A stretch of 64,000 nucleotides of DNA from contig CM016925.1 of assembly GCA_006247105.1 (NCBI GenBank), positions 2,418,001-2,482,000 on the forward strand, written 5' to 3'. This document shows, piece by piece, positions 10,683 through 56,478 of this stretch. This stretch comes from Giardia muris (Eukaryota > Fornicata > Diplomonadida > Hexamitidae). Both the position numbers and the translations under genes were made by a program. How positions within the stretch are numbered: position 1 is the first letter of the stretch; each line of letters opens with the position of its first letter. The notes beneath the pieces were generated by a model. That model ran no database searches. It saw only the letters and a program-made list of their open reading frames with translations, and was not told where the DNA came from.

Positions 10683-11933
10683 TTACGACGACTCCCCCTT
10701 CTTGAAGCGAATAGTTGCCGAGAGGATCTGGAAGAGGATCTCCTTTGGACTCCCCGTCAAGTTGACGAGCTCCCCAGCCTGCTGGACGAAGAGGTCGACG
10801 TCCTCGTCGTCGCACTTGTGGGCGAGCTTGTTAAGCCGCGCTTGTTCGCTTGCCAGTTCCGTGTCAAGGTCGAAAAGCTCGAGTAGAGGCTCTCCTGGCG
10901 GGTCCGGAAGGACCGGGAAGTGAACGGCCGGGATGAGCGGAGGCGTCGGCTTCTCAAAGTTCGGATTGACCAACTTCAGAGTTGGCTCGCTACGGCTGAA
11001 TCCCATTCGCTCGTAGAGGGCGGAGACCTGGGGGAGCACGTTCGGATTCGCGGTTGCCACCGTGTCGAGGAGGCGTGTGAAATCCTCAGGCAATGGGTCA
11101 GGGGCATGCAGACATGTGCGCATATTCAACGCAGCAGTCTGTGTATCTGGAATAAATACCTCATCACCTCCTCCGATCAACGAATCTGTCGCCGTAGCCG
11201 CCTGGCTGAAGACTGGGGCGTCCGCATTCCTATCAAGGTATTGCAGAAGCACTTCAAAGAGGTGCCTATTATCAAACTTACTGATGAAAGCTGGGGAGCA
11301 CATCTGGGCCGTCCCTAATATAACACAACGGCCATAGGAGGGGCTATTTGGATGTTCTCGATGAACAACGGCGACTGGTTGGTTCGAAGGATATCCTCCG
11401 TCTCCAGAGGAGAGAATGGGAACCGCTGCTGAGCTCACCGTAAAGGAGCATCCGTTCGGATAGACAAGGAAAACGTCGGACGCCGTAGCCCCACCCTTGG
11501 CCTTCTCGATCTTCGTCAGAAGTTGGGAGGATACAAAGCTTGCGGCCGAAAGGAGGAGGTGAGTCGGATGATAAAGCCCCGGGGTGTAGACCGACGAGAT
11601 GACAGGGTCACGACAGACGGAAGCAACTCCGTACTCTCTTAATAACCCTAAGGCCGGTTCCGATAGCTGTGGGCCAGAGGCCTCGGGTATCATCACCAGG
11701 ACAGGGCCTCCCGCGTTCCGATGCTGCTTGATCGCCTGCACGTCTCCGGCAGAGAGGCAATGCAAGGTCGAGGAGATGACCAGGACCGCGGACGGAGAGA
11801 TGCGGCGCGTAAGGCTCGTGATGACCTCTATGAACAGGCGACCCGCAAACGCCGTCGTCAAGCCGCGCGTTTCTGCGGTCACGGCCTCGACAGCTGTCGC
11901 AGGCGCGTGGAAGACGAGCGTCTGGTGCTCCAT
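10683..11933 (-). CDS. IFT52: Intraflagellar transport protein 52
   Basis: A 416-residue protein matching IFT52, an IFT-B core subunit needed to build flagella. The N-terminal half is the Rossmann-like GIFT domain (VLVISSTLHCLS; GGPVLVMIPEASG; ...YPNGCSFTV; GRCVILGTAQM). The centre has the family segment CLHAPDPLPEDF...LYERMGFS. The C-terminus carries FEKPTPPLIPAVHFP and LELFDLDTELASEQARLNKLAHKC. Length is close to human IFT52. The start at 11933 follows GTAAAA; a longer frame to 11996 would run through the tRNA-Thr gene. The gene is convergent with the Tctex1 light chain, another motor-transport component. Confidence 0.93.
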   Translation of the reverse strand: MEHQTLVFHAPATAVEAVTAETRGLTTAFAGRLFIEVITSLTRRISPSAVLVISSTLHCLSAGDVQAIKQHRNAGGPVLVMIPEASGPQLSEPALGLLREYGVASVCRDPVISSVYTPGLYHPTHLLLSAASFVSSQLLTKIEKAKGGATASDVFLVYPNGCSFTVSSAAVPILSSGDGGYPSNQPVAVVHREHPNSPSYGRCVILGTAQMCSPAFISKFDNRHLFEVLLQYLDRNADAPVFSQAATATDSLIGGGDEVFIPDTQTAALNMRTCLHAPDPLPEDFTRLLDTVATANPNVLPQVSALYERMGFSRSEPTLKLVNPNFEKPTPPLIPAVHFPVLPDPPGEPLLELFDLDTELASEQARLNKLAHKCDDEDVDLFVQQAGELVNLTGSPKEILFQILSATIRFKKGESS

Positions 11934-17318: not shown

Positions 17319-20300
17319 TCACTCCTCCATTCGACGACGATCGAGATGAAGGACCGTCAAAGTGTATGGGATCCATTCTCCTTGTTCGTTTTGATAATAG
17401 GGACGTCGAACAAGCTCAACAGGGAGGTTCATCGAGGGGAGGTTGTGGCCCGTAATAGCCCGTTGGGAGTTATCACGACCAGAAAAGAGAAGGCCTCGAT
17501 CGGGTGATGGAGGAGAGGTACGCCATTCTGGTGTCGGTCTTGTGGTGGATGGAAGCCTTGCAGAGAGGGATCGTCGTCGGATCCAAGAGCTATGTCCAAT
17601 CCTCTGAGGAGTGAAGGTAGATGGTGCTTTTCGTAACGGAGATGATTGCGGCATTGCCGTCAATGCTCGCATGGACGGTACGGACGGTTCCTTTCTATCG
17701 TTGAGGTTCTCGGCCCATAAGGGTTTAATTGGAGACCTTTTACGCGCTGGAGTTTGAGTAGAAGGTGCTCTAGAGGGCTTTCTGGGCGAACTAAGCTCTT
17801 GAAATGTTGCGCTTGAGTTTGGAAGTAATGAGACGGAGCTAAGGGCGGCGACGGCCTCCTGCACCGATACAGAGGTGGTTTCGCGTATGCTCCTGTTCAT
17901 GACGTGCCGATCCACGGTCGTACTAGAGTCTGTCATGATGCTGGTGACAGTGGGCCATGGATTCGTCATCATATTCTCTGGTGGCTCGTAACTAGGCCGT
18001 TCGGCGTAGACGTTTGGCGTTTCGGAGACATCATTGGGCTCGTCTTTAGATGAGTGGTGTACGATGTCCATATCGAGCAATTCTGAGTGGCATTGATACG
18101 ACAAGCTCAAATACTCTATGTCAGACGTCAAGTCCGACTGTGAAGGTGCTTCCATAATCGGTTGCGGATACCTATCGAGCTGCTTAAACAGCTCTAAGGG
18201 AGGATCCTGCATAGCAGATGATGAGTTCGGACTGGTATTAGTTTCGTCGTCAATATCCGTCAATCGGATCGAGGTGGTTCCAAGAGAGGTGACACCTGGG
18301 GCTACAGGGGGATGAATAACAGTAGTCGAAACGTTGGGGGAGGCTATAGGCAGTGTTGCCATAGTCGTCCTAGTCGGAGAAGGGCGACAAATGGGCGGGA
18401 GTGAGAGGAATTGGGATTCTTTCATTGTTCTAGGCGACTGCGAGGCGGATGCACGTGTATCCGCCGATAAGGCTTGAGGGTTGACTATATTATTTCTTGG
18501 AGTTCGAGGAACGGACCTTGAATGGGTCAAGTGAGCGGCCCCAGTCTTAGGTTGACGTGATGACGTCACTGATCTTGTTGGACTTCGAGAAAGGCGCGTA
18601 CTTGTTGTCTTCGAGCGAGTAAGATTAGTTGACTCCCGCTTACTCGTGATATCTTCAGATGCGGTCATCCTTCCATTGAGCTTGGAGCGGTGGACTACCC
18701 GTTCGGATCTAGTCATCTTGGGCGTGGTAGAATCGTTTCTATCGAATGTAGTAAAAAGATTTGAATAATTAGAGATATCGATGCTGGCGTCTTCGCCAAG
18801 TAAGGCTTGCTTCTGCATATTAACTTCCTTCTTCACCTCATGAAGAAAGTCCTCGACCGTCTGGCATGTATCAAGACATGCAGGAACCGACCCGAATCTT
18901 TTCCTATATAAGGCACGGGCTCGTGCCATGGCGGCGGCGATTTTGACTTCCTTCTGGTGTATCTGCTTGGTTCTTGAGGATTGCGACTCTGGAACTTGCA
19001 CTCCTATTTCGATGAACTTGGTCAAATCATCAGCTAGCCCTTGCAGCTGCTCCTCCAGCTTCCGAGTGGTTATTACCGTCTCAATAAGATGATAGATGCG
19101 GGAATCTCCTAAAAGCTCGGGCCCCTGGATCGTTGTAAAGATCTCCTCGGCTTTCTTTCTCCGTAGCTCACGTAGATCCCCAATGAGCTTCTGCTTATCG
19201 GCCTCAAGCTCCTTGACCCGCGATTTCAAGGCATCGATCTGCAGCTCATGAGAGAGTTCAGCCTCCTTGGCAGAGAGAATCGCACGAACCTTATCAAGCT
19301 CGAGCTTAAGCTCAAGTTTCTCGCCCTCCACAACATATATTTTCTGCTTGAGGGCATCTGTCTCTTGCATCCCGCTTAGACTGCGGCCAAGGATCTCATC
19401 GGTCGCATTCCTACTATTTGCTACCCTCAGCTTCCGAGCCAGGCCTTGTACCTGCTCCTCAAGATCTTTGATCCTATTGTCTGTATTATGGAGGGCTACT
19501 GTCTTAGTATCAAGCTCCTTTTGCAAGTCTTCAATTAGGCTAGTTCGAGGGTTCTCAGTGGTACCGAGCTGGTCGCGTAGGACGGTATTTTCATACTCCA
19601 ACTCTTGGAGGCGAGCTTTAAGGGTGGACATCCCCTTGTTACTCTCACGGAGAGTCGCGATCTCTGCCGTCGCGTAATTGAGCTGCTCCATTAGTGCCCT
19701 ATTCCCATATGTATCTCCCTTCCCACCCGTATTCCTAGTACGATCAATACTGGGCGTACGAGTGTGTGTTCTGGCCTCTCCAATGGGCCTATCGAGATTA
19801 TCGGGCACATACCGGTCCCCGATGCGAAATCTATTGAAATATTGCTCCTTTAAGTTGTTGATCTCGGCAATGAGACGCAGACGCTCCTCGGTTCCGGCCT
19901 CATGCGCATCGATGTAGAGCTGTTCTAACCGATGCGAAAACTCGCGCTGAGTCGCTATATCCGCCGCCAAGACATCAATATGCATCTGGCAACGCTCTAT
20001 ATGCTCGGATTCGAGGGCGACAAGGCGTCCGACACGTGTCCGAACCTCCATCTGGACGGCTTCTGAAGCCCGTTCGGCCAAGTCGTCTTGTGCACGCCGA
20101 AGATAAGGGGCATAGATAGGGAGGACGTCTTTGGGGGCTTCATGATCTGTCAAAGGGTTGCAACCAAGAGAAGACTCGAAAAGGACATAGAGAGGTCGTC
20201 CTTGAATACTAAGGCGCAAGCGATCAAATGTGTCGTCGATGGCAGCATTGAAAATACGAAGGAGGGCGCATGTGAGGTCTTCAACGGCTCGCCGCTGGAG

Positions 20301-20423
20301 GCGCGCCCAATCTTCCACGCTGGTCGCTCCGCAAGACGTGTGGTCCAGCTCTGTGAGGAGGGATATCGGGACGGGGGCTGGAGGCGGCTTGGGGACAGGG
20401 TTGGGGCCGCCAGTACTCGTCAT
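17319..20423 (-). CDS. Long coiled-coil protein, paralogue 1 of a three-member family
   Basis: A 1034-residue protein. Residues 76-115 hold an N-terminal module (RPLYVLFE, CNPLTDHEAPKDVLP) shared with the genes at 22700 and 28741. Residues about 120-480 are long coiled coil. A second shared landmark, RIGDRYVPD, sits about 120 residues after the module. The C-terminal half is Ser/Thr/Pro/Arg-rich and looks disordered, with basic patches. The last 40 residues are more ordered (VELVRRPYYQNEQGEWIPY). The ATG is at 20423; the codon before it is GTG. No known domain is recognised. A cytoskeletal or flagellar-base scaffold is conceivable from composition only. The stop abuts tRNA-Val. Confidence 0.8.
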   Translation of the reverse strand: MTSTGGPNPVPKPPPAPVPISLLTELDHTSCGATSVEDWARLQRRAVEDLTCALLRIFNAAIDDTFDRLRLSIQGRPLYVLFESSLGCNPLTDHEAPKDVLPIYAPYLRRAQDDLAERASEAVQMEVRTRVGRLVALESEHIERCQMHIDVLAADIATQREFSHRLEQLYIDAHEAGTEERLRLIAEINNLKEQYFNRFRIGDRYVPDNLDRPIGEARTHTRTPSIDRTRNTGGKGDTYGNRALMEQLNYATAEIATLRESNKGMSTLKARLQELEYENTVLRDQLGTTENPRTSLIEDLQKELDTKTVALHNTDNRIKDLEEQVQGLARKLRVANSRNATDEILGRSLSGMQETDALKQKIYVVEGEKLELKLELDKVRAILSAKEAELSHELQIDALKSRVKELEADKQKLIGDLRELRRKKAEEIFTTIQGPELLGDSRIYHLIETVITTRKLEEQLQGLADDLTKFIEIGVQVPESQSSRTKQIHQKEVKIAAAMARARALYRKRFGSVPACLDTCQTVEDFLHEVKKEVNMQKQALLGEDASIDISNYSNLFTTFDRNDSTTPKMTRSERVVHRSKLNGRMTASEDITSKRESTNLTRSKTTSTRLSRSPTRSVTSSRQPKTGAAHLTHSRSVPRTPRNNIVNPQALSADTRASASQSPRTMKESQFLSLPPICRPSPTRTTMATLPIASPNVSTTVIHPPVAPGVTSLGTTSIRLTDIDDETNTSPNSSSAMQDPPLELFKQLDRYPQPIMEAPSQSDLTSDIEYLSLSYQCHSELLDMDIVHHSSKDEPNDVSETPNVYAERPSYEPPENMMTNPWPTVTSIMTDSSTTVDRHVMNRSIRETTSVSVQEAVAALSSVSLLPNSSATFQELSSPRKPSRAPSTQTPARKRSPIKPLWAENLNDRKEPSVPSMRALTAMPQSSPLRKAPSTFTPQRIGHSSWIRRRSLSARLPSTTRPTPEWRTSPPSPDRGLLFSGRDNSQRAITGHNLPSMNLPVELVRRPYYQNEQGEWIPYTLTVLHLDRRRMEE

Positions 20424-20567
20424 CACACTCTTTCAAAATCTAAGCTCTTTATTTTCACGAAAGCGACACGAGCCCTATCTTATAAGGTCGCGTACTCAGC
20501 CTCTCCCTCACCGTCCACCGTTGAGTGTGCTCGTTTCTATACTATGCTTTTGATGTAATGAAAAAGG

Positions 20568-22703
20568 ATGTGCACGAGATCGAACTCATCGGAGCAAGAG
20601 TATCGGTCATTGGTTATGAACATGCTCGCCTCGGGTGTTTTTGACATGGGGGCAAAGCAAGACTCTTCTCAGGCTTACCCGGTGGCGCCATGCGTCGAGC
20701 TATGCCTCTCCTCAAGCGGACCTTACCCTAGTGTTCCGCGGATCTATGAGGACGTAGAATCTACCGTCGTCCATACCGAGCAGACGGCTGCACGTCTCTC
20801 CTTCAGCCAACTAGATCCGCCTCCCCTCGGAACCAAAGGAACCATTAGTCCTCAAGCAGTTAAAGTACCTTCCAAGCAAGTAGAAGGCGAAGTGGACGAG
20901 AGCGTCTCCATACAGCATATCCTTACCGATCTCGGAATCGATCGGAAGAACACTAGCCCAGAGGACTATAACGAACTTGTCACCCTACTCACAGCCTTAC
21001 ACCGACGTGACTTCCCTGAGATCAACAAGACTTTAGCTCTTTTCCCTTATAATGCTGCTCTTAGTCAAGCATGTGCAGAGCCTGGCTCAAACCCCATCCG
21101 CGAGCGGTTGATAGAGCTTCTACGTCCTTCAGCTCGCCATTATACTGAAGAAAGAGTGCCTAAGCCTCGAACACGGACACCTGAAAAGAATACAAAAGGG
21201 AAGTCACGTAGTCCTCAAAAGAGACGAGGGCGTGCGTCTCAACAGTCTATTAAAGCCTCTGGCGTCAAACAATCTTCCGTTAGTTTAAGCGCCTTAGATG
21301 AGGGGGAGAATAGCAGATTAGAAGGTATGTCCCCGATTCCCGATCGTAATATCACACAAGCTACTCAGGACACCGTACTCACCACTCTTGTCGAGATGGA
21401 AAAGCTTCTAGTGGCTGCACAGGAGCGTATTTCTCAGCTTGAGGCCGAGTTAGAACAACGACCTTTTCCCACAGTTGTTGTTTCCACACAGACATCAATG
21501 GGACCGGAGATGCATTCTCTTGCTGTTCAAACAGATGGTATTGACACCGAGGATAACGGAATGGAGACAGACTTCATCCTTGCTTGCGATAGAAGTATAA
21601 TCTGCGAGCATTGTGGTTGGGATATGGTGAGTAAGGGGTCATCTCCCGTAGTGATTCCTCCGGCATGGAGTCCGATGAGGCCACCAGCACAATTGCTTAT
21701 GGAGGTGATTCGTGAAGAAGACTTACAAAAGAGCGCACTTACTGGCAAAGGAGTGGCTCCACAAGGGCCACAGATGGTTACCGAGTATGTTCTTGTGCAT
21801 CCCAATACAGGAAGATTGGCAGGTTCTACTATTAACATGAAATTACGTGATGATCCTCCTACACCGAATCTAGAAACCCCACAACCGCCATTTCTCCACA
21901 GTTCTAGCTGTGACGTGGGTGAGGAAGCACCTGAGGTCTCTAAAGAAGACAGAGATCTTTCCTTCGATGAGAGTCAGGTTGGCCTTGTCTTTCTTCTTTC
22001 ACAACAATTACAGGTGACCTGGCCCGATAGCCTTCAGAGCACCGTTCTGACCGCTGTTCTTGGAGACTTGAGGTACTTACAGACTTGTCGTGAAGTACCA
22101 ATGCTTCCAGAAAGTGTCAGTATGTTCTTTGATGAGATGATGGCTCAAGGTTATATCCCCATTCTTGCACGGCCACACGACTATGCATACTTCTCGTTGA
22201 TCCTCTTCTCGATCTATGCGCACCACGTCCTTCCATCTATAAGTTGTGTTGCAAACCTTCTTGCTCCACATCTCCATGAGCTTGTTAGGGATCTTGACGA
22301 TGAATATGCACTTAGTTGCCTGTTATGTGCACGACTTCTAACGTTCCTCGTTGGTCTGGAACGGTTCTTGGCAGGAGAATCTTTGGATTGGTTGGTGCAG
22401 GCATCTTCCGATCTATTAATTGAATTCAGACGACAAGAACATGATATCGAACACTCCTGTGTCGCCCCCGTGCTTCTTGCAGCCGCACGCACCCTAAGAG
22501 ATAAGCTCATTTACAGCTCGCGATGTACTACGGCACAGCATGCGCAATATGAACGAGATACGGTTAATAGGATATTTGATGCTCTAGTAGACCGGTTACG
22601 GGCGCGAATAAGGGGCACAAGTGCTGGGAACGGGGGTTCTCTCTCCTATGAAAGCTGTGTTATCATGGAACTAATCGATGAGGTACAAAAGCTTTGTAGC
22701 TAA
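20568..22703 (+). CDS. Unknown 711-residue protein, helical C-terminus
   Basis: I do not recognise this protein. The N-terminal 70 residues are Ser/Pro-rich. Residues 110-190 form a small helical unit (ILTDLGIDRKNTSPEDYNEL...). Then come a basic disordered patch (EKNTKGKSRSPQKRRGR), a short coiled coil (VEMEKLLVAAQERISQLEAE) near 280, a CEHCGWD pair near 345, and a compact alpha-helical region from about 465 to the end. The ATG at 20568 follows GAAAAAGG; an internal Met (MNMLASGVF) is an alternative. Its TAA overlaps the TAG of the convergent paralogue-2 gene by 2 bases, so the genes share 4 bp. Confidence 0.75.
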   Translation: MCTRSNSSEQEYRSLVMNMLASGVFDMGAKQDSSQAYPVAPCVELCLSSSGPYPSVPRIYEDVESTVVHTEQTAARLSFSQLDPPPLGTKGTISPQAVKVPSKQVEGEVDESVSIQHILTDLGIDRKNTSPEDYNELVTLLTALHRRDFPEINKTLALFPYNAALSQACAEPGSNPIRERLIELLRPSARHYTEERVPKPRTRTPEKNTKGKSRSPQKRRGRASQQSIKASGVKQSSVSLSALDEGENSRLEGMSPIPDRNITQATQDTVLTTLVEMEKLLVAAQERISQLEAELEQRPFPTVVVSTQTSMGPEMHSLAVQTDGIDTEDNGMETDFILACDRSIICEHCGWDMVSKGSSPVVIPPAWSPMRPPAQLLMEVIREEDLQKSALTGKGVAPQGPQMVTEYVLVHPNTGRLAGSTINMKLRDDPPTPNLETPQPPFLHSSSCDVGEEAPEVSKEDRDLSFDESQVGLVFLLSQQLQVTWPDSLQSTVLTAVLGDLRYLQTCREVPMLPESVSMFFDEMMAQGYIPILARPHDYAYFSLILFSIYAHHVLPSISCVANLLAPHLHELVRDLDDEYALSCLLCARLLTFLVGLERFLAGESLDWLVQASSDLLIEFRRQEHDIEHSCVAPVLLAAARTLRDKLIYSSRCTTAQHAQYERDTVNRIFDALVDRLRARIRGTSAGNGGSLSYESCVIMELIDEVQKLCS

Positions 22704-25700
22704 CCTTTTCGGCGCGTCTGTGACAAGAAGGCCGTACTGTCTGCGTCACGAATATCCTTCAGGTCTTTGCTGAGACGAGTAAGGAATAGTCGGGGTTGTT
22801 CAAGGAGTTGGCTGCCTTCTGTCGACGATTCGACATAACCGCTGGTGGTCCCGCTTTCCCCAAGGACTGAACGAAGCAATTCTGCGGATTCGTTCTTTCC
22901 ACTTGCGCGTAAGGCTCGCTCACTGGCGCTTGCCAGAAGGCCCTGCTCTACGTTTATCGTCGGTTTCTGGATAAACGGCTCGTAGGGAGCCGGCTTCCCT
23001 GGCAAATAGTTATTTGGAAGGAAAGCTGCGGAGGTACTGTCATGATGTGAGCCACTAAGGTCGGCCTGGTCCTGCTTAAGGATTTTATATCCCTTCTCGG
23101 TCCGTGGAGCAGCGGGCGTCGTGATGGGGACCTCTGAACCCTTCTTGATGTGAAGAGAATTAATAATGAAGCGTGAATCCTGTGGATTATAAAGAGGAAG
23201 CTTATGGTGCCCATATCCGCTCCCGGTAAGTGGCTGGCCGAGACCTGAATCAGCTAAAATAGCGGCGGCTTGTTGTTCAAACGACCGCACCATCAACTCC
23301 TCCTGTGTTAAGGGATCGCCTCGTCCTGGGGATTGTGGGACAATGACAGGACTTGTTGATGAGGAATGTGTTGGGCTAGTGACCTCTGTGAACTGCAAGT
23401 CCGTCCCCGAGAGCTGCAACGTCTCTTGAGTATCAGTTGGATGAGGGTGCTTATAGGCACGAGGGCTTCTACTCTGAGATCGTGGGGGTACAAGAGCTGA
23501 GGTTCCCTGTTGTCCTTGAAGAGGACCATAACGTACAATACTCGAACGAGGAGTTCTGGAACCCGTAACTTCCTCCACCTCGAAAGAACACGAGGGTACA
23601 GCATCAACAAGTTGCTGCATCTGTTGAAGGTTGAAGACCGGGAGTCCTTCACCTCCTTGTAATACTGGATAAGATGCATCTCCTTCATCGGACTTAAGCA
23701 CCCTATTATCGGCAGATTCCATCACCTCGGTAAGACGCTTGCTGATGCGCTCGGTATCCGTAAGCGTATTATCTCGTTTGCTTTGAAGTGGCCGTGGAAT
23801 ACGTACCGGCACATCCTCAGGTGGTCTATCCGGGTTTTCATCTACATGAACAATGCTAAGTCCAAAGCTTGGATCTGTGCATGAAATCTCGCCCTGATCA
23901 TCCAAGTGGTTGATCTTGGCGCGCCACTCTGTCGTTGGAATGTTCTTGTAGCTTGACGAAAGTGGTCTTAAAGCTTGTCCCGTTGTCTCCTCTCCAACAC
24001 GGATCTGACCCGTCGAATCAGCTAGTCCTAGTTCTATTTTCTTCTCGAAAAGTGCTCGGTTCGTGTTGATATTTCCAGATGACATCCCCGCAGGCTCGAT
24101 AAAGTCAGACATCTCAGGGTCAGGGACAAAGTTACTCTTGTGTCGTGGAGTCCTATTGGATGCCGAAATACTACCGGAAACCCCTAAAGAAACGTCAGGG
24201 GCGTCGCTTGATGGCTGGATACGCTCACGATTCTGGACACGTCCGATTATATCATTCCCATAGAAGTTCGAGATACCAGGCTTCTGAATGAACTCAACCA
24301 GTCTATCAAGGTTTTCCTTCATACGCCGAAGAAGGTCCTTGGGGATTTCAACGCTCTGTGACGTGCCAGGGACAATGACAATGAGCCGTGCACCACGCTC
24401 TTTGATCTGCAGGCTTTCTGGATTACTGAGCAGGTCTTTATAAACAATCGCCTCATAAAGCTCCTGCTCAAGCACAAGACGTCCATTTGCATCGTATACA
24501 ACCTTGTGAGTTATATGAGAGGGGACCTCTGAACCAACAGAGCCACCCACTAAAGGAGGTAAGACGCGGGGCGTGGCCTTACGAGTTCCACTTTCTTTAG
24601 GCTCCCGACTTGTCGTATTAAGATCTTCAGGGCGCATATCGCCCTTGATAGTTAGATCGAGAACCGGTTGCTTTTCAGTAGGCGGGTGTGTATCTTTATC
24701 ACCCAGGGACAAACGAGGCGATTCCACGGGTTGAAGCCGTGCATACCCGAAGATGACGGGCTTACTCCCATGACGTTGCAAGCCTTGACTACCTTGCTTC
24801 TCCACTAGTTGTTCAACGGAGACGCCACCGGCCGCGTCAACTTGCTTCAACGTATGTTGGACCTGGATCGAGGGTACCTTTGGGACGGAGTTGCTTCTCC
24901 CTGTCCTTGATGTCGAAGAATCGTTTGTCGTCCCACGAGGTGGCATCGCTTCAACGGTCACAATGGTGGTCGTCCGTTCGGCTGTACGATTGAGAGGAGT
25001 TGATGACTTACTTGGGGCTGTACGGCTAAGGACTTCGGCAAAGTCTGGAGAGGGGGGTGCAACAGAAGTGATACGGATCAATGACTCATATGTAGCAGTC
25101 GTGAGGTCAATATCGAGAGGAAGATGTTGCTCGTCTTCCACCTGCTTCGTGCGTGATGGTTGATCACGTCCCTCCTCGCTTGTCACAGGCGCAAATCTTG
25201 ACAACTCCGCATCCCACGTTCTCACCTCTGCACCATATTTGTCCGCTTCTTCCTCGAATTCGGAAGCGCGTCTAAGAAGCGAGCCATCGGCCATGTATCG
25301 GTTTTGGGCGCGTAAGTATTTAGCATAGGCGAGGGCGTCCCGTTGTTGGCATTCGGCACGTAATCTGTTCTGCTTCGCTCGAATCTCTGCGGCGTTGTTA
25401 TATAGGCGAGCGAAGACACCCTTCACAGTCCAGTCGCGAGGAGCACGATCATATTTGACCTTGAAGACCGGGATATCGCTACGCTTAATAACTTGCTCAA
25501 CACGCCCCATTCGTGTCGTTTCATCGTTATCTCCTCCGGACTCCTCGCAGGTGAGCCCAGACGAGTTATCGACGTTCCGAGTCTGGCACCATGCATCCTT
25601 GACGTTCACGGCGATCGTGATGTCCTTCTGTAGTCTTTCAATCTTCTCGAGCGTCTGATTGGCGAGAACTTCCTCGCGTGTGCGGTCGTGCTCGTTCTTC

Positions 25701-28069
25701 AGGCGCTCACTTATGTAGTCTGAGACCTCCTTATTACTCAGGAAGTCGGGCTGAATCCCTTGTGGCCGTGATGGAGGCCTATCAATGATCCCATCGTAGC
25801 CTGCAACGTATGAAGCATAAAGACTAAGCATCCGGTCCATCTCCTTCATCGAGATACCTGTCTGTACCTGCTTCCATGGATGTGGCCTCCCATCACTTCC
25901 AATATCCTGGCCACTCCAAGTACCTTCATAATCGGAATCTGTTTCTTTGTACTTCTTTCGAGACCCACCCTTTGAACCCTGCTGTCCTGGACTATCCTTC
26001 TTCCCAACTGACTTGGGAACATGCTTCTGTATTAAGTTGGCGAGCTCATCATTACCCTCTGGGTTCTGAGCCACTCGCATCACCTTTGAGAGCATATCTC
26101 TCTTATCTCCACCCTCAGCAATCATCTGAAGAAGTTGTTGCATCGTAGGGTCACCAGATAGGAACTGGCCCAAGATTAGACGAAGATCTGCTAACTGATC
26201 GCTACTTAGCCCAAGGTTATCCAGGAGCCCGCCGATATCGATTTTATTGGCTTGATAGAAGCTTGTAACGACCTTATTGTAGTCGTTCTTGCCGGGGGGA
26301 CAATAGTAAACCGTACTCGGCGGTGCTGTTGAGGTGGGAGTAGTCTTCGAAAAGCTCACACGCCTTTCGGAGGTCCCCTCTTCCGGAAGAGAGATCATCT
26401 TAGTCACGGTGCCATCCAGGACGCTTATCCGCGAGGCTGCAAGGACCGCAGACGCGCTTCCCGCGGGGGCTCCGGACCCAACCACGTTCTTCAGGCCCTT
26501 CGGCGTGCTTCCACGGCGCGTCGAGGGCGTTCGACGTTGGCCTGCGGACGGAGCCCTGGTGGACTCTAAGGAGATTGGGGTCCCAAGATCAGCAGCTTGG
26601 AGAGCATCTTTGACGAAGGTCTCGCCGAAGCCATCACGATCTGTCAAGAGGTTGAACCCTGTGAGATCGAAGACGAACTTCTTGATTCGAAGGTCATCGG
26701 CCTCATCCTGTGCCTTACCTGGTGATTGAGAGCCTTGTACCTCATTTCTATCACTATGGCCTTGCTTTCGGCCGTCATCATAGACTGGAGTATCTGTAGT
26801 CGCTTCTCCTTGAGAACCTCCCGCTTTATCTGCACGAGCACGTTGGATATCACGCTCGTTCTCTGCTGCAGCTAGCCGACGTAACAGATCTGCGATCTCT
26901 CTATCCTTATCTGCAAGCTGTTTCGACATATTATCGGGCACCACCTGCGATGTCGCTGCTTGCGTCTGTAATTGAGCTTGTAACTGGCTCAAGGAAGCTC
27001 TAGCATTATCACTTTCTCGTTCGAGATCGGAATTGGATTGACGAAGCTCCTTCAATTGGGATATCAAATCCTCAATCATTTCATTGAGCTTAAAGATCGT
27101 GCTATCCTTCTCCCCATTCATCTGCTGAAGTGAGCTTATCTGTTCTTTCAACGCATCGATGATGGCCTGAAGCTCAGGGATTTTCCCGAGCTCTGCAAGC
27201 ATGGTCTCATACTTCGCCTTAAGAGTTTCAAGTTCAGTTTGAATACGGGCACGAGCTTCAGCCTCCTGACTAACCCGTAATTCAAGCTCGACGATTTCTT
27301 TTGCTCCGGTACGACTACTCTTCTTAAGCTCCGGAATGGTCACATCACTTGTCCATTCGCTTTCCGGCATTCCATCGGGACGATAAACGGTGCCAACACG
27401 TTTCTTCTGTGTTAGTTGCTCAGTCAGGCTATTGATCTGCTGGGTAAGCTTCTCACGTTCGGCTTGTGCGGTTTTCATTAGCCGAGAGTTCTCATTAAGA
27501 AGTTGTTCGCAATACTTTCGAAGACGTTCAAGATCTGAGGAGATGGATACCATAACATCCTCTGCTTTTAGCCGTGCCTGAAGTTCTGCGATAACGACCG
27601 CACAGAACTCGCTTTCGATATCATGTTTAAACTTATGTAGCGTTAGGCGGCGGAACGCCTTCTCCGCTTGGTCAATGAAGGGCTCGAAGAGGGGCAAGAC
27701 ATTTTTCGGGGCCAAGTGGTCAGTCATTGGATCACAACCCAAAGAGGCTTCGAAGAGGACGTACAGGGGACGATTAGTGATTTCTCCCCGTAGTTCATTG
27801 AAGAGTCCTGTGATCATCTGGGCCATATATGTGTTCAGAGACGATACCAGAGTTGTGACATGCTCTCTGAACTCACGATTGAGGTACGCGAAAATGGCTG
27901 CACGACTAGAAGGACCAGAATTCGTCTCCGTGGTACTAGCTTGCATCGGGACGGGAAGTGACTGGTTGAGTAATGCAAGGGCAGGAGGTTGGATCGTATG
28001 TGATGAAACCCCCGATACCGAGTCGGCTCCTCCGCCGGTGATAGAAAGGTCCGAGAACTCTAGTGGCAT
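22700..28069 (-). CDS. Giant coiled-coil protein, paralogue 2 of a three-member family
   Basis: A 1789-residue protein, the longest in the window. The N-terminal module is at about residues 100-140 (RPLYVLFEASLGCDP, then DHLAPKNVLPLF). Coiled coil runs from about 155 to 420. The shared landmark GTVYRPDG lies about 120 residues after the module. The remaining 1350 residues alternate disordered Ser/Thr/Pro-rich sequence with short helical blocks (for example VSDYISERLKNEHDRTREEV, which has a counterpart in paralogue 3, and KEMDRMLSLYASYVAG). The ATG at 28069 follows GTCAAAA; an in-frame ATG at 28117 adds a poor N-terminus. No enzymatic motif is seen. A 124-bp divergent region separates it from the V-ATPase c'' gene. 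Confidence 0.82.
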   Translation of the reverse strand: MPLEFSDLSITGGGADSVSGVSSHTIQPPALALLNQSLPVPMQASTTETNSGPSSRAAIFAYLNREFREHVTTLVSSLNTYMAQMITGLFNELRGEITNRPLYVLFEASLGCDPMTDHLAPKNVLPLFEPFIDQAEKAFRRLTLHKFKHDIESEFCAVVIAELQARLKAEDVMVSISSDLERLRKYCEQLLNENSRLMKTAQAEREKLTQQINSLTEQLTQKKRVGTVYRPDGMPESEWTSDVTIPELKKSSRTGAKEIVELELRVSQEAEARARIQTELETLKAKYETMLAELGKIPELQAIIDALKEQISSLQQMNGEKDSTIFKLNEMIEDLISQLKELRQSNSDLERESDNARASLSQLQAQLQTQAATSQVVPDNMSKQLADKDREIADLLRRLAAAENERDIQRARADKAGGSQGEATTDTPVYDDGRKQGHSDRNEVQGSQSPGKAQDEADDLRIKKFVFDLTGFNLLTDRDGFGETFVKDALQAADLGTPISLESTRAPSAGQRRTPSTRRGSTPKGLKNVVGSGAPAGSASAVLAASRISVLDGTVTKMISLPEEGTSERRVSFSKTTPTSTAPPSTVYYCPPGKNDYNKVVTSFYQANKIDIGGLLDNLGLSSDQLADLRLILGQFLSGDPTMQQLLQMIAEGGDKRDMLSKVMRVAQNPEGNDELANLIQKHVPKSVGKKDSPGQQGSKGGSRKKYKETDSDYEGTWSGQDIGSDGRPHPWKQVQTGISMKEMDRMLSLYASYVAGYDGIIDRPPSRPQGIQPDFLSNKEVSDYISERLKNEHDRTREEVLANQTLEKIERLQKDITIAVNVKDAWCQTRNVDNSSGLTCEESGGDNDETTRMGRVEQVIKRSDIPVFKVKYDRAPRDWTVKGVFARLYNNAAEIRAKQNRLRAECQQRDALAYAKYLRAQNRYMADGSLLRRASEFEEEADKYGAEVRTWDAELSRFAPVTSEEGRDQPSRTKQVEDEQHLPLDIDLTTATYESLIRITSVAPPSPDFAEVLSRTAPSKSSTPLNRTAERTTTIVTVEAMPPRGTTNDSSTSRTGRSNSVPKVPSIQVQHTLKQVDAAGGVSVEQLVEKQGSQGLQRHGSKPVIFGYARLQPVESPRLSLGDKDTHPPTEKQPVLDLTIKGDMRPEDLNTTSREPKESGTRKATPRVLPPLVGGSVGSEVPSHITHKVVYDANGRLVLEQELYEAIVYKDLLSNPESLQIKERGARLIVIVPGTSQSVEIPKDLLRRMKENLDRLVEFIQKPGISNFYGNDIIGRVQNRERIQPSSDAPDVSLGVSGSISASNRTPRHKSNFVPDPEMSDFIEPAGMSSGNINTNRALFEKKIELGLADSTGQIRVGEETTGQALRPLSSSYKNIPTTEWRAKINHLDDQGEISCTDPSFGLSIVHVDENPDRPPEDVPVRIPRPLQSKRDNTLTDTERISKRLTEVMESADNRVLKSDEGDASYPVLQGGEGLPVFNLQQMQQLVDAVPSCSFEVEEVTGSRTPRSSIVRYGPLQGQQGTSALVPPRSQSRSPRAYKHPHPTDTQETLQLSGTDLQFTEVTSPTHSSSTSPVIVPQSPGRGDPLTQEELMVRSFEQQAAAILADSGLGQPLTGSGYGHHKLPLYNPQDSRFIINSLHIKKGSEVPITTPAAPRTEKGYKILKQDQADLSGSHHDSTSAAFLPNNYLPGKPAPYEPFIQKPTINVEQGLLASASERALRASGKNESAELLRSVLGESGTTSGYVESSTEGSQLLEQPRLFLTRLSKDLKDIRDADSTAFLSQTRRKG

Positions 28070-28193
28070 TTTTGACTCATTGCTGCATCCAGGTTTCTTC
28101 CTTGAGAGGCTCATCACCAGTTCATCTAGGAGAAGGCCCTCATTTATCTGGACTGAGTCTCATTGTGTCATGAGTCATGAGCCCTAAAAGAAA

Positions 28194-28715
28194 ATGACCT
28201 TGACAGACTTCCAGAACCTTATTGAGGGGACCTCGCCCTTCTTTTACGTGACCGTGGGCTGCTACATAGCTATAGGCTTCTCGATACTAGGGGCGGCGAT
28301 CGGTATCTTCAACGTAGGTGCATCCTTAGTCACTTCAACCATTCATCATCCTGAGATTCGTTCGAAGAACTTGCTATCAATCCTATTCTGCGAGGCGATA
28401 GCCCTCTATGGCGTCATCTTGGGCGTGGTCATGGCTACCACGGTCAACCAGGACCTGAACGACTTACATTTACAAGGGGTTGATGATATGCAGAGGATCG
28501 AGTATTTATCAGAGAGCTTCCGTTTTGGAGGTGCTGGGACTGCCGTTGGCTTAACAAACTTTGCGGCTGCCATTACTGTTGGAGTTGTTGGGAGCACTGT
28601 CACCATTTCCCATTCAAACGAACCGTCCATCTTCGTCAAGCTTTTCATCTGCGAGATCTTTGCTGAGGCCATCGCGCTCATTGGACTGATCTGCGGCATC
28701 GTCATGATCATCTGA
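28194..28715 (+). CDS. VMA16: V-ATPase proteolipid subunit c''
   Basis: A 173-residue membrane protein with four hydrophobic helices. It matches the c'' (ATP6V0B/Vma16) type of rotor proteolipid: AIGFSILGAAIGIFNVG, KNLLSILFCEAIALYGVILG with the proton-carrying glutamate at 67, FGGAGTAVGLTNFAAAITVG, and FVKLFICEIFAEAIALIG. The short loop before helix 3 and the KNL segment favour c'' over c. It lacks the extra N-terminal helix of some c'' proteins. It would sit in the membrane V0 ring of the proton pump that acidifies peripheral vesicles. The ATG follows CTAAAAGAAA. An AGTGAAT signal overlaps its stop. V-ATPase B lies 5 kb downstream on the same strand. Confidence 0.93.
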   Translation: MTLTDFQNLIEGTSPFFYVTVGCYIAIGFSILGAAIGIFNVGASLVTSTIHHPEIRSKNLLSILFCEAIALYGVILGVVMATTVNQDLNDLHLQGVDDMQRIEYLSESFRFGGAGTAVGLTNFAAAITVGVVGSTVTISHSNEPSIFVKLFICEIFAEAIALIGLICGIVMII

Positions 28716-28721
28716 GTGAAT
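28715..28721 (+). terminator. AGTRAAY polyadenylation-type signal at V-ATPase c'' stop
   Basis: AGTGAAT begins on the last base of the TGA stop. It matches the consensus reported for Giardia mRNA 3' ends. Confidence 0.6.
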
Positions 28722-28740
28722 CGATGGTGCGCCCAAAAAA

Positions 28741-31700
28741 ATGCGTCCCGAAAGCCGAGGGACGGCTCCTCATAGCCTCGGCTCCTCGTTTGTGGCGTCG
28801 CCCCCGCTCCTTCGGCGGACACCTGAGAGGGTCATTGGGGAAATTCTTGACAGCTATTCAAACTGTGTGATGAGTAGTTTCGCGCAGCTACGCGAAAGTA
28901 TCACGAACCGGCCTCTCTTTGTGATGATGGAGCCTCTGCTACAGTGCGACCCTGTGCATGACCATGAAGCTCCAAAGGATGTCTTACCTCTTTTCCAAGC
29001 CTACATAGATAAGGCGGAGTCTCAAGTCCTTAATGTCCCAACCACTTGCTTGCGTATCAAACTTGAAGAGGCTCTTGTAACTCTTATGAAAGAAGCGAAC
29101 GATCTGAATGCCACTTTAAACGATCGACTCGACCGCACTGAATCATTACTTGCAGATTCACAAGCACAACTATTAGCTCAAAAAGACGTCATGATTAACG
29201 TACTAAAAAAGAAGTCCGACGAGAAGCTGAAGCAGCTTACTGAGATCCAAACTCTCAAAGAACAACTGCATCAACGGAAGGCCCATAGTGGTGTTGAGCT
29301 TTATAGGCCGGACTTTGGGTTTGATGGTACCAAGCGTGGTCTAGGAGAGGAAGGAGATGAACTCCGAGAACAATGGCTGATCAAGTTGCGTGAAAAGGAC
29401 GTTGAGATCGCCCGATTGCAAAAGGACCTCCAGAATGCTAAGACAGAGCTCGATTTGGCTAAGACGCTTGGAAAGGCTTCCCTTGACGAGGCCGAGCAGA
29501 ACCGTCTCGCCGCTCTCAGCAAGAACAACCAAGCCCTTTCACTTGAAGATCAGAACCGTCTGTTACGAGCACGACTTGATGAGCTTGAGAAGTCGGTCGG
29601 CCTCGACTCGACAGCCCAAAAGAAACTCATTGACCAGCTTAAGGCCGAGGTCTCCGAGCTTACAAGAAAGCGTGCAATATCAGATGAAGCTCTTTCTACA
29701 GCAAATCAACGGCTTGATGAATACAATAGAAAGGTGGTCTTTCTTGAGGAGCAGCTAGCCACAGAAAAGCAGAAGCGCGCCAATAATGAAGATACACTTC
29801 GGAAAGAGCTTGAGCGTACAACTATGGAACTGATGAAGACTAAAGACGAGCTTCGGCGGCAGGCCTTGGAGGCCGACCGCTTATCCGCACTCCTTGAGCT
29901 GAAACAAAGAGAGTCGGAAGGAGATGATATACTAGCTTCCATGTCCGATGAGTTGGAAAGACTAAAGAAAGAGAATAGTCGTCTGACGAGCGATCTTAAG
30001 GTCTATCATTCCAAGTTAGCCAATGCCACTGCACGCCTAATGCGTGCCAGTGATAACCATTCTGCCCTACAATCACGGCAGACGATTAGAGAGGTTTCCG
30101 AACTCTTCGACACTAGCGATTTGCAGCACATTGCACATGAGTTAGGAACGGATGTTGACGTCTCCGACCTTCCCTTTGACCAAGAAGGGCTATCCGGGAA
30201 TGAGATAAGCGCATTAGATGCTGCTGGAGAACGCAGCCCTAGTCCAAAGCCCTCACAACTTCTCATCAACAAGTATCGCGAAATTATCTCAGTGTTGGCT
30301 GCAATCGACGAACCGAACATTCCTCGGACCGTTGCGGGCTTGAACAAGTTCCTACTCGCCGCGATCAAGAACAGATCCAGTGGGACTGGCTTTAGTGAGT
30401 TCCTAGAGAAAGGAGGAGCAGGACAGCAGGAAAAGGGTTCAGGAGTCCGAAAAGGGAAGAAATCTGTACGTTCTTCGCCATATCCGCAGCCTGAGGCCTC
30501 CGAGTCCTCTAAGGCTGGGTCTACTGGGCGTCGTAGTAATCTAGTTAAAAAGCCTGTGGCAAATGATGATCTAGCCAGGCTTCTTGCTCGTGATGATGTT
30601 GATGAATATATAAGCCAACGGATACAAGAAGGGATCGACGCCTTCCAAGAGGCTTACACTGCGGGTACGGGTGCGCACATTTTGCAGAACATTCGTGATA
30701 CCGCAGTCTCTCGGCTCGACCAAATTTCTCATCGATCATGTCAGACGATTCTATCTTATGTTGGTGAATCTATGCGTACCTTATCGAACTCTGAGATCAT
30801 TGATGAGACAAAGGGGAAATTTCAGGACCCGGAAGGGCGTTGGCGTGCTATTTCTCATGGGAATCTTCCTGAAACGGCTGAGCCCACTAGTCGTTCAGCA
30901 AACGAAGAACGCCTTGCTCTATATAACAAAACTTCAGATTGTAACCTACCCTTTAGTGATCCGAATCACCCCATCTACTCAAGAGACGCCGGGGTCGTCG
31001 CGAACATTGCTGGCCCAACCCTTGGGCTACATTCACCGAATTCTAAGAGGCTACATAAGGATACCCCAGATAAGCTTACTACGGATGATCTAATCACTCA
31101 CATCGACAATGAAGTCCAATTGAGTACCAACTATGCGAAACAAAAGGCTGAGGCCTACAAGGCATATGCACGTAGATATAAGGGTGTGGGCTGTAATGCC
31201 CTTTCATTCACTCAACAAATCGCCCAACTTGATAGTGCTAAGGGTTTCATGAACTCCCTTGTCATCCGCTCTGCCGCCCCAACTGAATCTGCATCCATAA
31301 CGACTCCGAAGTCAATATCTCGTACACGTAATCCGAAACGGTCACCAGAGTTATCAGTTCAAGAACATAGTTCCACACCACAAACCTTACCTCGATCTGT
31401 GCATTCCGTCAGTAATATTCACGGTTTAAGTGTATCATCCTTACAGCAAGAAGTGTCCGAACAGCAGACTCGAACGTCGAAGCCTATTATCGTGCAGAAC
31501 TCAACCACAAAACTAGACCGTAAAGTTCCTCGAGCGCTTGCAAGCCCATCACCCATGGACCTTCCCCCTATCAATCCAGGACCCTCATCAGTTGAACCCT
31601 CAAGTTGTCTTGATTCCACACTGCATATTACTACTACGGGGACAGAAATTAATGCTCGTGCGAATATTCAAGAGGCGACATTCGTTGATAGTCGTCCAAT

Positions 31701-33267
31701 GACCCCGCGCACGATCAGTACGGCCATCCAACTCATAGATGGAACCGAGGCCGATGGTATCTATATCCGAATGACCAAGGATGGCATAATCAACGGGCAA
31801 ATCGTTGTTAAGGATGGTGCCATCATTAGTCTTAGTTACCGAGTGGCAGAAATGGCGAGAATCAATAGAGTCATGTATTGTACGGTAGTTCCTAATAAGG
31901 AGAGGTCCCATGCCTCCCCTGTTAGCACTCCCGTTGCGGAACAACCATCCTCTCTGCCTATCGCCCTTGCGAAGAACATGGCTCCTCCCGAAGCCGTCGT
32001 GTCTCCAGCCTTGGATGAGTTCGTTTCGAGTAAGCAGAATGACATTCCAGATCACTCAAACGTTGTTTCGGCAAACCTCAGTATCGTAACTATCATGGAG
32101 GCCACCCACGACTCTCTTCTAGGCGGTGATAATCCGCGAATTCGTGGTACCGTGAATGGGCCAGATCTTGGGCCTCGAGATTCGGTCTTTTCAAAGCATT
32201 TTTCTCTATCAATCATTACCGATAAAGTAGAGTCATCCGAGGCTGATGCAGTTCCATCGCAAGAAAAAGTCATCGACGACTTGACTATTGCGGAGAACCT
32301 TGCCGAAGAAACGCCTCAGCACACACGTGTTGCTGACCAAACACGTACCGATCAATCACTTCACTCTGCCGATGGAATCTTCATGGGAGTAAGCGCCATT
32401 GAGTTGCAACGCTCCAGTGTCCTCGATGGCTCGTTTTCAGGGTCTCACTCTCCTTCACAGTTAACTCTCAGTACCGAGTGTCTCGATGACGCTGTGATGA
32501 ATGCATTGTCATCTTTACCCTCTTCCGAATGCCCAACGGCCGAACCAAGAAAGGTTCGGATGTCTCAACGAGAACTTGAGCTGACGGAACCTGGGGCTGT
32601 GCTTCAGACGATTCGAATTCATGATACAACTGGTACTGATAGGACGATCGAGGTAGTTACCCGAGTCACAGACACTCCCTATCCGTACACGAGCAGCCAA
32701 GAGGCTCACCGGCCTTTGCCACAGACACTACCGCGTGTCGAAGCTAAGGAGTTCGTCTATGACCTTGGGGCTATGAAGCACGCAACGCTAGAGGGTGCTA
32801 GCCTCCGCAATACCACCACGGGGAACGAAATTCTAGAGAAGGCGCTCAGTGTTAAGACCATAGCACGTGTCGGGGGCTTCCATGAGCACCCGCAACACAC
32901 CTTCGGAACGGCGGTCTCACGTGCGAGTCGACAGATCCCTGTCGATGATTCTGCAGTCATTCGTCTTTATCGTAAGCCTCCAGGTGCAGCCCCCTCCCCA
33001 ACAGTCGTCATCCTTAATCAGTTAGCCGGGCTGAATAGTCCGGAGGTCGAATCACCCACACATGTCAGTTTCTCCAGTTGCTTTGAACCCACGCGTAGCA
33101 ATAGCGTGACTCGAGAGGTCAGGACTGAAGCACCTCTGGTGGATATTGTGGCACCTGACCCTCCTATTGAGGTTATCAAACAACCCAGGGAACCAACATT
33201 ATCAAAGCCAAAGTACTACACTACCACGAAGGGCGTTCGTAACACTCCTACCGACACCTCTAAGTGA
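28741..33267 (+). CDS. Giant coiled-coil protein, paralogue 3 of a three-member family
   Basis: A 1508-residue protein. The N-terminal module begins at residue 57 (RPLFVMMEPLLQCDP, then DHEAPKDVLPLF). Coiled coil fills about 95-440 and the landmark VELYRPDFG lies about 115 residues after the module. The segment DVDEYISQRIQEGIDAFQEA near 620 parallels one in paralogue 2. The C-terminal 900 residues are largely disordered, with Ser/Thr/Pro-rich tracts and short ordered islands (GTEADGIYIRMTKDGIINGQ). No catalytic motifs are seen. The ATG follows seven A residues. It begins 25 bp after the c'' stop. I infer that the three paralogues arose by duplication and then diverged strongly outside the N-terminal module. 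Confidence 0.82.
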   Translation: MRPESRGTAPHSLGSSFVASPPLLRRTPERVIGEILDSYSNCVMSSFAQLRESITNRPLFVMMEPLLQCDPVHDHEAPKDVLPLFQAYIDKAESQVLNVPTTCLRIKLEEALVTLMKEANDLNATLNDRLDRTESLLADSQAQLLAQKDVMINVLKKKSDEKLKQLTEIQTLKEQLHQRKAHSGVELYRPDFGFDGTKRGLGEEGDELREQWLIKLREKDVEIARLQKDLQNAKTELDLAKTLGKASLDEAEQNRLAALSKNNQALSLEDQNRLLRARLDELEKSVGLDSTAQKKLIDQLKAEVSELTRKRAISDEALSTANQRLDEYNRKVVFLEEQLATEKQKRANNEDTLRKELERTTMELMKTKDELRRQALEADRLSALLELKQRESEGDDILASMSDELERLKKENSRLTSDLKVYHSKLANATARLMRASDNHSALQSRQTIREVSELFDTSDLQHIAHELGTDVDVSDLPFDQEGLSGNEISALDAAGERSPSPKPSQLLINKYREIISVLAAIDEPNIPRTVAGLNKFLLAAIKNRSSGTGFSEFLEKGGAGQQEKGSGVRKGKKSVRSSPYPQPEASESSKAGSTGRRSNLVKKPVANDDLARLLARDDVDEYISQRIQEGIDAFQEAYTAGTGAHILQNIRDTAVSRLDQISHRSCQTILSYVGESMRTLSNSEIIDETKGKFQDPEGRWRAISHGNLPETAEPTSRSANEERLALYNKTSDCNLPFSDPNHPIYSRDAGVVANIAGPTLGLHSPNSKRLHKDTPDKLTTDDLITHIDNEVQLSTNYAKQKAEAYKAYARRYKGVGCNALSFTQQIAQLDSAKGFMNSLVIRSAAPTESASITTPKSISRTRNPKRSPELSVQEHSSTPQTLPRSVHSVSNIHGLSVSSLQQEVSEQQTRTSKPIIVQNSTTKLDRKVPRALASPSPMDLPPINPGPSSVEPSSCLDSTLHITTTGTEINARANIQEATFVDSRPMTPRTISTAIQLIDGTEADGIYIRMTKDGIINGQIVVKDGAIISLSYRVAEMARINRVMYCTVVPNKERSHASPVSTPVAEQPSSLPIALAKNMAPPEAVVSPALDEFVSSKQNDIPDHSNVVSANLSIVTIMEATHDSLLGGDNPRIRGTVNGPDLGPRDSVFSKHFSLSIITDKVESSEADAVPSQEKVIDDLTIAENLAEETPQHTRVADQTRTDQSLHSADGIFMGVSAIELQRSSVLDGSFSGSHSPSQLTLSTECLDDAVMNALSSLPSSECPTAEPRKVRMSQRELELTEPGAVLQTIRIHDTTGTDRTIEVVTRVTDTPYPYTSSQEAHRPLPQTLPRVEAKEFVYDLGAMKHATLEGASLRNTTTGNEILEKALSVKTIARVGGFHEHPQHTFGTAVSRASRQIPVDDSAVIRLYRKPPGAAPSPTVVILNQLAGLNSPEVESPTHVSFSSCFEPTRSNSVTREVRTEAPLVDIVAPDPPIEVIKQPREPTLSKPKYYTTTKGVRNTPTDTSK

Positions 33268-33411
33268 TAACGCACTCAGAATAGGTAGGGCTTAACCTCA
33301 TTGAGCTTTCAATGAGCTAACTTGGTCATACTGTCCTCAGAAGCATCGCTGGAAGCAGTTTCCATGGGGTTTCAAAGATCTCAACTTGATATCCGTTGTC
33401 GTATAGATAAA

Positions 33412-33897
33412 ATGCTACAAAGGCCGCGGAACCCTCATATAATCCAGCGCATGCTGGCACAGGAGAAGAGGGACCCCGACCCAAACTACCAGATCTTTCT
33501 TCCCGACCCGAGCAACCTTCTCGAGATTCATTTCTCCGTACACGGTCCTCAAGGCACTCTTTATGAGGGCGGGATCTATCATGGACTGATCATGCTTGAT
33601 CCCGATCACCCCTTCAAGCCACCTCACATCCAGATGCTCACTCCCAGCGGTAGGTTCGAAACGCACAAGAACATTTGCTTCTCGTTCACTGCCTACCATC
33701 CTGAGACCTGGTCCCCGGCCTGTAAGCTGCGGGATATTATCATTGGTCTGTCCAGCATGTTCGACGCAACGAAGGAAGTTGGACTGGGATTCATCCAGAA
33801 CCCGAATCCCAGTGATGTCGTCGAGTGCAGGGAGAAAAGCCGGACCTACCAGTGCACGCAGTGTAGCGCGAACCACTCTCTCCTCTCCAGTCAGTAA
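33412..33897 (+). CDS. Ubiquitin-conjugating enzyme E2, UBC6/UBE2J type, without tail anchor
   Basis: A 161-residue UBC domain. The order YEGGIYHGLIMLDPDHPFKPPHIQMLTPSGRF is typical of the UBE2J/Ubc6 class. So is NICFSFTAYHPETWSP, with the catalytic Cys at about 89, in place of the HPN motif of ordinary E2s. Ubc6-type enzymes normally carry a C-terminal transmembrane tail that fixes them to the ER for ERAD. Here the protein ends in a hydrophilic tail with a CTQC pair and no hydrophobic span. The start at 33412 follows GATAAA; the frame is open upstream to 33322. AGTAAAC overlaps the stop. The V-ATPase B start lies 23 bp downstream. Confidence 0.85.
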   Translation: MLQRPRNPHIIQRMLAQEKRDPDPNYQIFLPDPSNLLEIHFSVHGPQGTLYEGGIYHGLIMLDPDHPFKPPHIQMLTPSGRFETHKNICFSFTAYHPETWSPACKLRDIIIGLSSMFDATKEVGLGFIQNPNPSDVVECREKSRTYQCTQCSANHSLLSSQ

Positions 33898-49913: not shown

Positions 49914-49916
49914 TAT

Positions 49917-53124: not shown

Positions 53125-53136
53125 ATCCTATTTTAC

Positions 53137-56424: not shown

Positions 56425-56478
56425 TTCTTTTTTTAGAATCCGCGCTTTGGGGAGAAGGAACTAAACCCTTTTACCAGC

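What the first reader, a model, noticed from the sequence alone, without database searches (positions are those of the whole stretch)
17319..33267. Three giant coiled-coil paralogues share an unrecognised N-terminal module
The genes at 17319-20423 (-), 22700-28069 (-) and 28741-33267 (+) each carry, near the N-terminus, R-P-L-[YF]-V-x2-[FM]-E-x2-L-x-C-[DN]-P-x2-D-H-x-A-P-K-[DN]-V-L-P. A coiled coil and then a [YR]-[VR]-P-D landmark follow 115-130 residues later. The rest is divergent and largely disordered. I know no named domain with this signature. The invariant Cys, Asp-His and Lys could form a binding site, or the module could be a dimerisation head that organises parallel coiled coils. 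Three copies within 16 kb point to local duplication under selection to keep only the head. This is the strongest candidate in the window for a new protein family.
Basis: partly seen in the sequence, partly recalled or inferred. Interest (0 to 1): 0.82.

Follow-up and report, generated by a model that had tools for sequence, protein, structure and literature searches.

The report
Seven Giardia coiled-coil scaffolds, one head
Three large neighbouring genes of a mouse Giardia share a real and apparently unnamed "head" in front of a long helical rod; they belong to an ancient set of at least seven such genes, one of which also has a relative in Giardia lamblia, and they probably act as rod-shaped scaffolds whose heads dock to each other or to a common partner.

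Summary
The shared N-terminal module is real in all three genes, with one error in the printed signature: V-x-[FM]-E, not V-x2-[FM]-E. A 53-residue profile of the three heads finds four more genes elsewhere in the genome and none of 1722 decoys. Four own-genome searches gave the same seven loci. Contig lengths point to Giardia muris. Gene B has a G. lamblia P15 relative annotated only as "Coiled-coil protein". No Pfam family passes its cut-off and no PDB sequence matches significantly.

Family-wide, the loop's E, L, C, D-H and P are invariant; the Lys is not (Arg in F). Two predicted models share a layout: helix, loop of about 25 residues with the signature, helix of about 100 residues, Y-x-P-D linker. 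This looks more like a helical cap with an exposed docking loop than a globular domain. Five of seven tails share a second element, VFxRLYxxAxxI. The duplications look older than the muris/lamblia split, and A, B and C are not shown to be tandem copies.

Most likely a Giardia scaffold family; dimerisation and partner are untested.

The parts
17319..20423 (-). Family member A, 1034 aa: head, long helix, tail; no second element found
   Evidence: relative P0004 80% identical over the whole length
19674..20318 (-). A head segment
   Evidence: aligned; not modelled
20118..20198 (-). A signature loop RPLYVLFESSLGCNPLTDHEAPKDVLP
19800..19811 (-). A landmark Y-V-P-D
22700..28069 (-). Family member B, 1789 aa (open frame to ATG at 28114, 1804 aa)
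27248..27892 (-). B head segment, the stretch modelled
27692..27772 (-). B signature loop RPLYVLFEASLGCDPMTDHLAPKNVLP
27374..27385 (-). B landmark Y-R-P-D
25376..25423 (-). B second shared element KGVFARLYNNAAEIRA, found in 5 of 7 members
28741..33267 (+). Family member C, 1508 aa; no second element found
28789..29433 (+). C head segment, the stretch modelled
28909..28989 (+). C signature loop RPLFVMMEPLLQCDPVHDHEAPKDVLP
29302..29313 (+). C landmark Y-R-P-D

Best explanation
A, B and C belong to a Giardia family of at least seven long, rod-like scaffold proteins. SHOWN: a conserved head of about 170 residues (27-residue signature, then about 100 residues to a Y-x-P-D-like landmark) and long paralogue-specific tails, with a second short element in five. 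PREDICTED by models of B and C and by periodicity: a helix before the signature, the signature as a loop, a helix of about 100 residues after it; the first helix is amphipathic and may fold back along the start of the long helix, which would put the signature loop at the exposed N-terminal tip of a rod. INFERRED: the head is an assembly or docking cassette. It caps a coiled-coil dimer (homo- or heterodimers between paralogues) and presents the same loop to one common partner, while the different tails connect each rod to different cargo or places in the cytoskeleton. The partner and the cell structure are unknown.
For: The head core without the long helix separates the family from 1722 decoys. 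The same layout is predicted for B and C, with block-mean pLDDT 85 or more from segment residue 91 to 160. Column hydrophobicity is helical in helix 1 (0 of 2000 shuffles reach it) and in the first half of helix 2 (2 of 2000), but not in the loop (717 of 2000). In aligned positions 100-160 of the B head the best heptad register is the same in 6 of 7 paralogues, and over 116-166 in 5 of 7; the heptad contrast is above all but about 5% of shuffles in one or both ranges for B, D, E and G. Distance from loop to Y landmark is 93-106 residues in seven members. Head blocks are on the whole better conserved than tail blocks in both relative pairs. Tails share little beyond coiled-coil stretches and the second element.
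Against: No oligomer was modelled and no interaction is known. pTM is low (0.37, 0.36) and the loop, the most conserved part, is modelled at low confidence. Periodicity is weak in the second half of helix 2 (144 of 2000 shuffles reach it) and over the whole helix (177 of 2000). The heptad contrast of A, C and F does not stand out from shuffles in positions 100-160 or 116-166, and F prefers another register, so a coiled coil there is not shown for three of seven. Agreement of register among homologues can also come from common descent. The hairpin packing was not measured; it is inferred from periodicity and from middling VIA-align rows, some of which I recall as antiparallel hairpins and which the tool says may be only a common arrangement.
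Confidence: 0.46

Rival explanations
1. The head is only a folding device: a cap that nucleates a parallel coiled coil, conserved for structure alone, with no shared partner.
For: Helical periodicity beside the loop; shared register in 5 or 6 of 7; conserved spacing; no globular fold predicted.
Against: The most conserved stretch is the loop, not the helices; polar C, D and H are invariant in 12 of 12 heads, which is more than a cap needs (inference). Heptads do not stand out in A, C and F.
Confidence: 0.26
2. They are highly diverged members of a general eukaryotic ciliary, centrosomal or golgin-type coiled-coil family whose similarity is below detection.
For: Giardia proteins diverge fast (established knowledge); the best Foldseek rows include axonemal chains, but at E 1.5 and worse; member E sits beside a Parkin co-regulated (ParcG) gene.
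Against: Nothing above cut-off in Pfam for the seven, no convincing PDB sequence match, no Foldseek match at E<=0.001.
Confidence: 0.2
3. The loop is a ligand or metal site (Cys, Asp-His, Lys).
For: Cys and Asp-His are invariant in 12 of 12 heads.
Against: Lys is Arg in F; one Cys and one His per chain are few for a single-chain metal site; loop low-confidence.
Confidence: 0.08

Closest known systems
'Coiled-coil protein' [Giardia lamblia P15] (P0007, 2095 aa) and close relatives P0005, P0006, P0008 of unnamed source
   Same: Same head (66-68% identity over B residues 84-235) and, for P0005 and P0007, conserved islands along the whole length including the second element: presumably B orthologues
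   Different: Longer tails; Pro in the loop replaced by Ala; annotated only as coiled-coil protein. Reciprocal orthology could not be tested
Giardia head-stalk proteins (ankyrin repeats plus coiled coil; Elmendorf et al. 2005, seen only as a reference-list line in PMC3243723)
   Same: Giardia proteins with a head and a coiled-coil stalk
   Different: No ankyrin repeat was listed for any of the seven members; the head here has no Pfam match above cut-off
Coiled-coil proteins at Giardia peripheral vesicles (GL50803_10167, 15591, 17249, 6464; PMC9928461, passages and sections 7 and 8 read)
   Same: Giardia coiled-coil proteins treated as tethers in pull-down networks
   Different: Their sequences could not be fetched here, so whether any belongs to this family is unknown
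Rad50 zinc hook (recalled, no call)
   Same: A short conserved loop with Cys at a turn between coiled-coil helices
   Different: Here C-x5-H instead of CxxC, near the N-terminal end of the rod; no metal shown

Membership tests
Head family (this work) | Head core detectable by a profile of other members | tested here: met
   Profile of A, B, C core finds D, E, F, G; 0 of 1722 decoys and 0 of 70 non-family ORFs
Head family (this work) | E-x2-L-x-C-[DN]-x3-DH-x7-P loop plus Y landmark about 100 residues on | tested here: met
   12 of 12 heads for the loop (pattern written from these sequences); landmark in 7 of 7 paralogues
Head family (this work) | Second element VFxRLYxxAxxI as a family-wide mark | tested here: not met
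   Present in B, D, E, F, G (z 4.6-10.4), not found in A and C (z 0.2, 0.3), so not a defining feature
Giardia ankyrin/coiled-coil head-stalk family | Ankyrin repeats | tested here: not met
   No ankyrin family listed for the seven proteins, while the same library finds them in 6 other ORFs of the window
Any named Pfam domain in the head | Score above curated cut-off | tested here: not met
   0 of 7 heads
A fold of known structure | Significant structural match of the head | tested here: inconclusive
Coiled-coil protein | Heptad pattern in the long helix of the head | tested here: inconclusive
   Stands out from shuffles in B, D, E, G; not in A, C, F
Parallel coiled-coil dimer | Dimeric state in solution | not testable with these tools
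   Only single chains can be modelled

The most novel reading that the evidence does not exclude
The invariant loop is a lineage-specific hook: at the tip of each rod two chains bring together two Cys and two His (C-x5-H from each) and bind a metal ion, joining rods of the seven paralogues tip to tip in chosen combinations, so that one small code of heads organises a Giardia-only cytoskeletal or vesicle scaffold.
Probability: 0.07. Interest if true: 0.8.

Novelty: new variant of a known kind. Interest (0 to 1): 0.42.

Why it matters
Giardia builds unusual structures from proteins that annotation often calls only "hypothetical" or "coiled-coil". A head that ties together seven large, otherwise anonymous genes gives one testable rule (same head, same partner?) and a profile with which to find and name the members in G. 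lamblia and in other diplomonads.

Tried and rejected
Protein database: a search with whole A found one relative, but only the 7994 candidates sharing most words were scored; with the B head region four B relatives besides B; with a head profile the same four, again with only 7993 candidates scored. So lamblia counterparts of A and C-G were neither found nor excluded. IMG/VR: 9 pattern matches, none confirmed. The prokaryote genome scan did not run.

Segmental duplication linking A-B-C with D-E: rejected; only the family genes match among 50 window ORFs and 25 ORFs from four D-E loci. A-B-C as a clade: not shown; 5 of 9 inner branches open, long branches.

Second element as a family-only signature: not established. 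A DNA pattern for F-x-[RS]-[LF]-Y-x2-A occurs 21 times in the genome against 18 for its reversed control; four are family genes, and several others lie in open frames with a similar look, such as L042, L050, L053 and L054. A genome search with the B island found only itself, not D-G. The PDB profile search gave nothing significant. I recall similar motifs in flagellar proteins of other protists; a paper search on motif strings found nothing relevant.

A zinc finger shared by F and G: a CxxC stretch aligns at E 1.2 only; dropped.

Papers: four searches listed no paper that, from title and start of abstract, describes this family; full texts rarely hold sequences, so this is weak. Three other searches were for a gene number (39), the genome paper (53) and motif strings (73). 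The Giardia localisation atlas PMC13322205 (passages only) has no 'coiled-coil' in its main text and could not be mapped to these genes.
Full report
WHERE IT IS. The window is G000:C1:2418001-2482000 of a 9,737,486-base genome in 52 contigs. Contig C3 is 1,296,710 bases. The Giardia muris genome paper describes 59 contigs, 9.8 Mbp, five contigs over 1 Mbp and two chromosomes of 1.290 and 1.297 Mbp (PMC7641422, passages only). I take the organism to be G. muris; the contig count differs (52 against 59).

THE OBSERVATION. The three ORFs are as described. Whole-protein BLASTP between them gives E 8e-24, 2e-19 and 1e-19. The printed signature has one residue too many: V-x2-[FM]-E matches none of the three, V-x-[FM]-E matches all three. 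To separate the head from coiled-coil noise I built a profile from only 53 residues of A, B and C. In a set of the seven family proteins, 75 ORFs of the window and of four D-E loci (five of them family genes again) and 1722 shuffled or reversed decoys, the only hits at E<=10 were the seven family proteins and those five duplicates; the unused members E, D, F and G scored E 9.6e-20, 1.1e-18, 6.3e-14 and 9.5e-12.

HOW MANY. Searches of the whole genome with B and with the heads of F, G and D return the same seven loci, apart from one non-family hit at E 1.33. D (1786 aa) and E (2071 aa) lie about 19 kb apart on C2, F (1886 aa) on C3, G (1448 aa) elsewhere on C2. The tool scores only its best candidates, so seven is a lower bound. 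Relatives: P0004 (1029 aa) is 80% identical to A; four proteins of 2081-2095 aa are 66-68% identical to the B head, one of them named "Coiled-coil protein [Giardia lamblia P15]". P15 is the assemblage E (pig) isolate (abstract of PMC3091692 in the listing; table).

ANATOMY. In the alignment of seven heads the invariant residues (B segment numbering) are I38, E48, L51, C53, D58, H59, P67, I153, L156, E158, Y170. With the five relatives, E, L, C, D, H and P of the loop hold in 12 of 12; the Lys is Arg in F (the pattern used to pick the loop was written from these sequences, so this only counts letters). The landmark Y follows 101, 101, 103, 106, 93, 101 and 102 residues after the pattern's end in A to G (in E the pattern caught a Y four residues before the aligned one). 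AlphaFold2 with eight sequences gives for B helix 2-39, low-confidence loop 40-65, helix 66-166, a short helix 177-180 and helix 195-214 (mean pLDDT 74.8, pTM 0.37), and for C helices 6-9 and 11-39, a loop with a short helix 43-50, helix 63-166 and helix 186-214 (73.1, 0.36). A was not modelled. The first helix and the first half of the second are amphipathic at about 3.75-3.83 residues per turn (0 and 2 of 2000 shuffles reach the power); the loop is not (717 of 2000), the second half of helix 2 is weaker (144 of 2000) and so is the whole helix (177 of 2000). In aligned positions the best heptad register agrees in 6 of 7 (positions 100-160) or 5 of 7 (116-166). The heptad contrast stands out in B (121 and 22 of 1000 shuffles reach it in the two ranges), D (15 and 73), E (13 and 29) and G (54 and 32), but not in A (621 and 963), C (653 and 580) or F (377 and 360). 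The head is therefore more likely a helical cap with an exposed loop than a globular domain, and a coiled coil right behind it is supported for four of seven.

THE TAILS. Between paralogues the tails share little, but one element, consensus VFxRLYxxAxxI, occurs at B 898, D 839, E 1755, F 1376 and G 1205; leave-one-out scores stand 4.6-10.4 standard deviations above locally shuffled tails (60 shuffles each), and A and C show nothing (z 0.2, 0.3). The element was chosen from these same tails, which inflates the scores, and a genome search with the B island did not return D-G. Whether it is special to this family is open. B and its G. lamblia relative keep further islands along the tail. Head blocks are among the best conserved: A/P0004 90-100% in residues 51-250 against 79.9% overall, with two C-terminal blocks at 90-91%; B/P0007 56-70% in 101-250 against 35.7% overall, with the block holding the second element at 62%.

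HISTORY. A tree of 12 heads leaves the paralogues as a star (5 of 9 inner branches open, one starred), with end branches of 1.39 (D) to 6.54 (G) and stems of 3.33 above A+P0004 and 1.69 above B and its four relatives (support 83/99); inside those two groups branches are 0-0.39. B thus separated from its paralogues before G. muris and G. lamblia split, if the four are its orthologues; for the others the same is inferred from branch length only, and the tool warns that long-branch placements are unsure. Neighbours of D and E are not homologous to this window's ORFs, so clustering does not show a recent local duplication.

MECHANISM AND VERDICT. Committed reading: a scaffold family whose shared head caps the rod and docks to a common partner or to each other, with tails giving each member its own job (0.46). 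Family and head are shown; the fold-back of helix 1 and dimerisation are inferred; partner and location are unknown. A head found in seven proteins of one parasite genome and without a name is worth naming and testing, but as coiled-coil scaffolds these are a known kind. Interest 0.42.

Noticed in passing
window 47490-63723 (-), six of the ORFs: A run of ankyrin-repeat genes fills the right end of the window; two (51955-53124 and 60136-63723) also carry a RING-type zinc finger.
   Followed up: no
window 28194-28715 (+) and 33921-35369 (+): An ATP synthase subunit C gene (PF00137) lies between B and C, and a V/A-type ATP synthase alpha/beta gene after C; a ubiquitin-conjugating enzyme gene lies at 33364-33897.
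   Followed up: no
window 10683-11933 (-): IFT52 gene.
   Followed up: no
L009:7868-8581 (+): A Parkin co-regulated protein (ParcG) gene lies right after family member E.
   Followed up: no
L042 and L054: Two non-family ORFs carry sequences resembling the second element (MFDRLYKEA and VFSRLYTSA); it may be a wider Giardia motif.
   Followed up: partly
L011:1364-5710 (+), residues 1059-1080: Member G has a weak zinc-ribbon-like stretch, below Pfam's cut-off.
   Followed up: no
P0004: A 1029-aa relative of A, 80% identical, from an unnamed source, possibly another Giardia close to this one.
   Followed up: no
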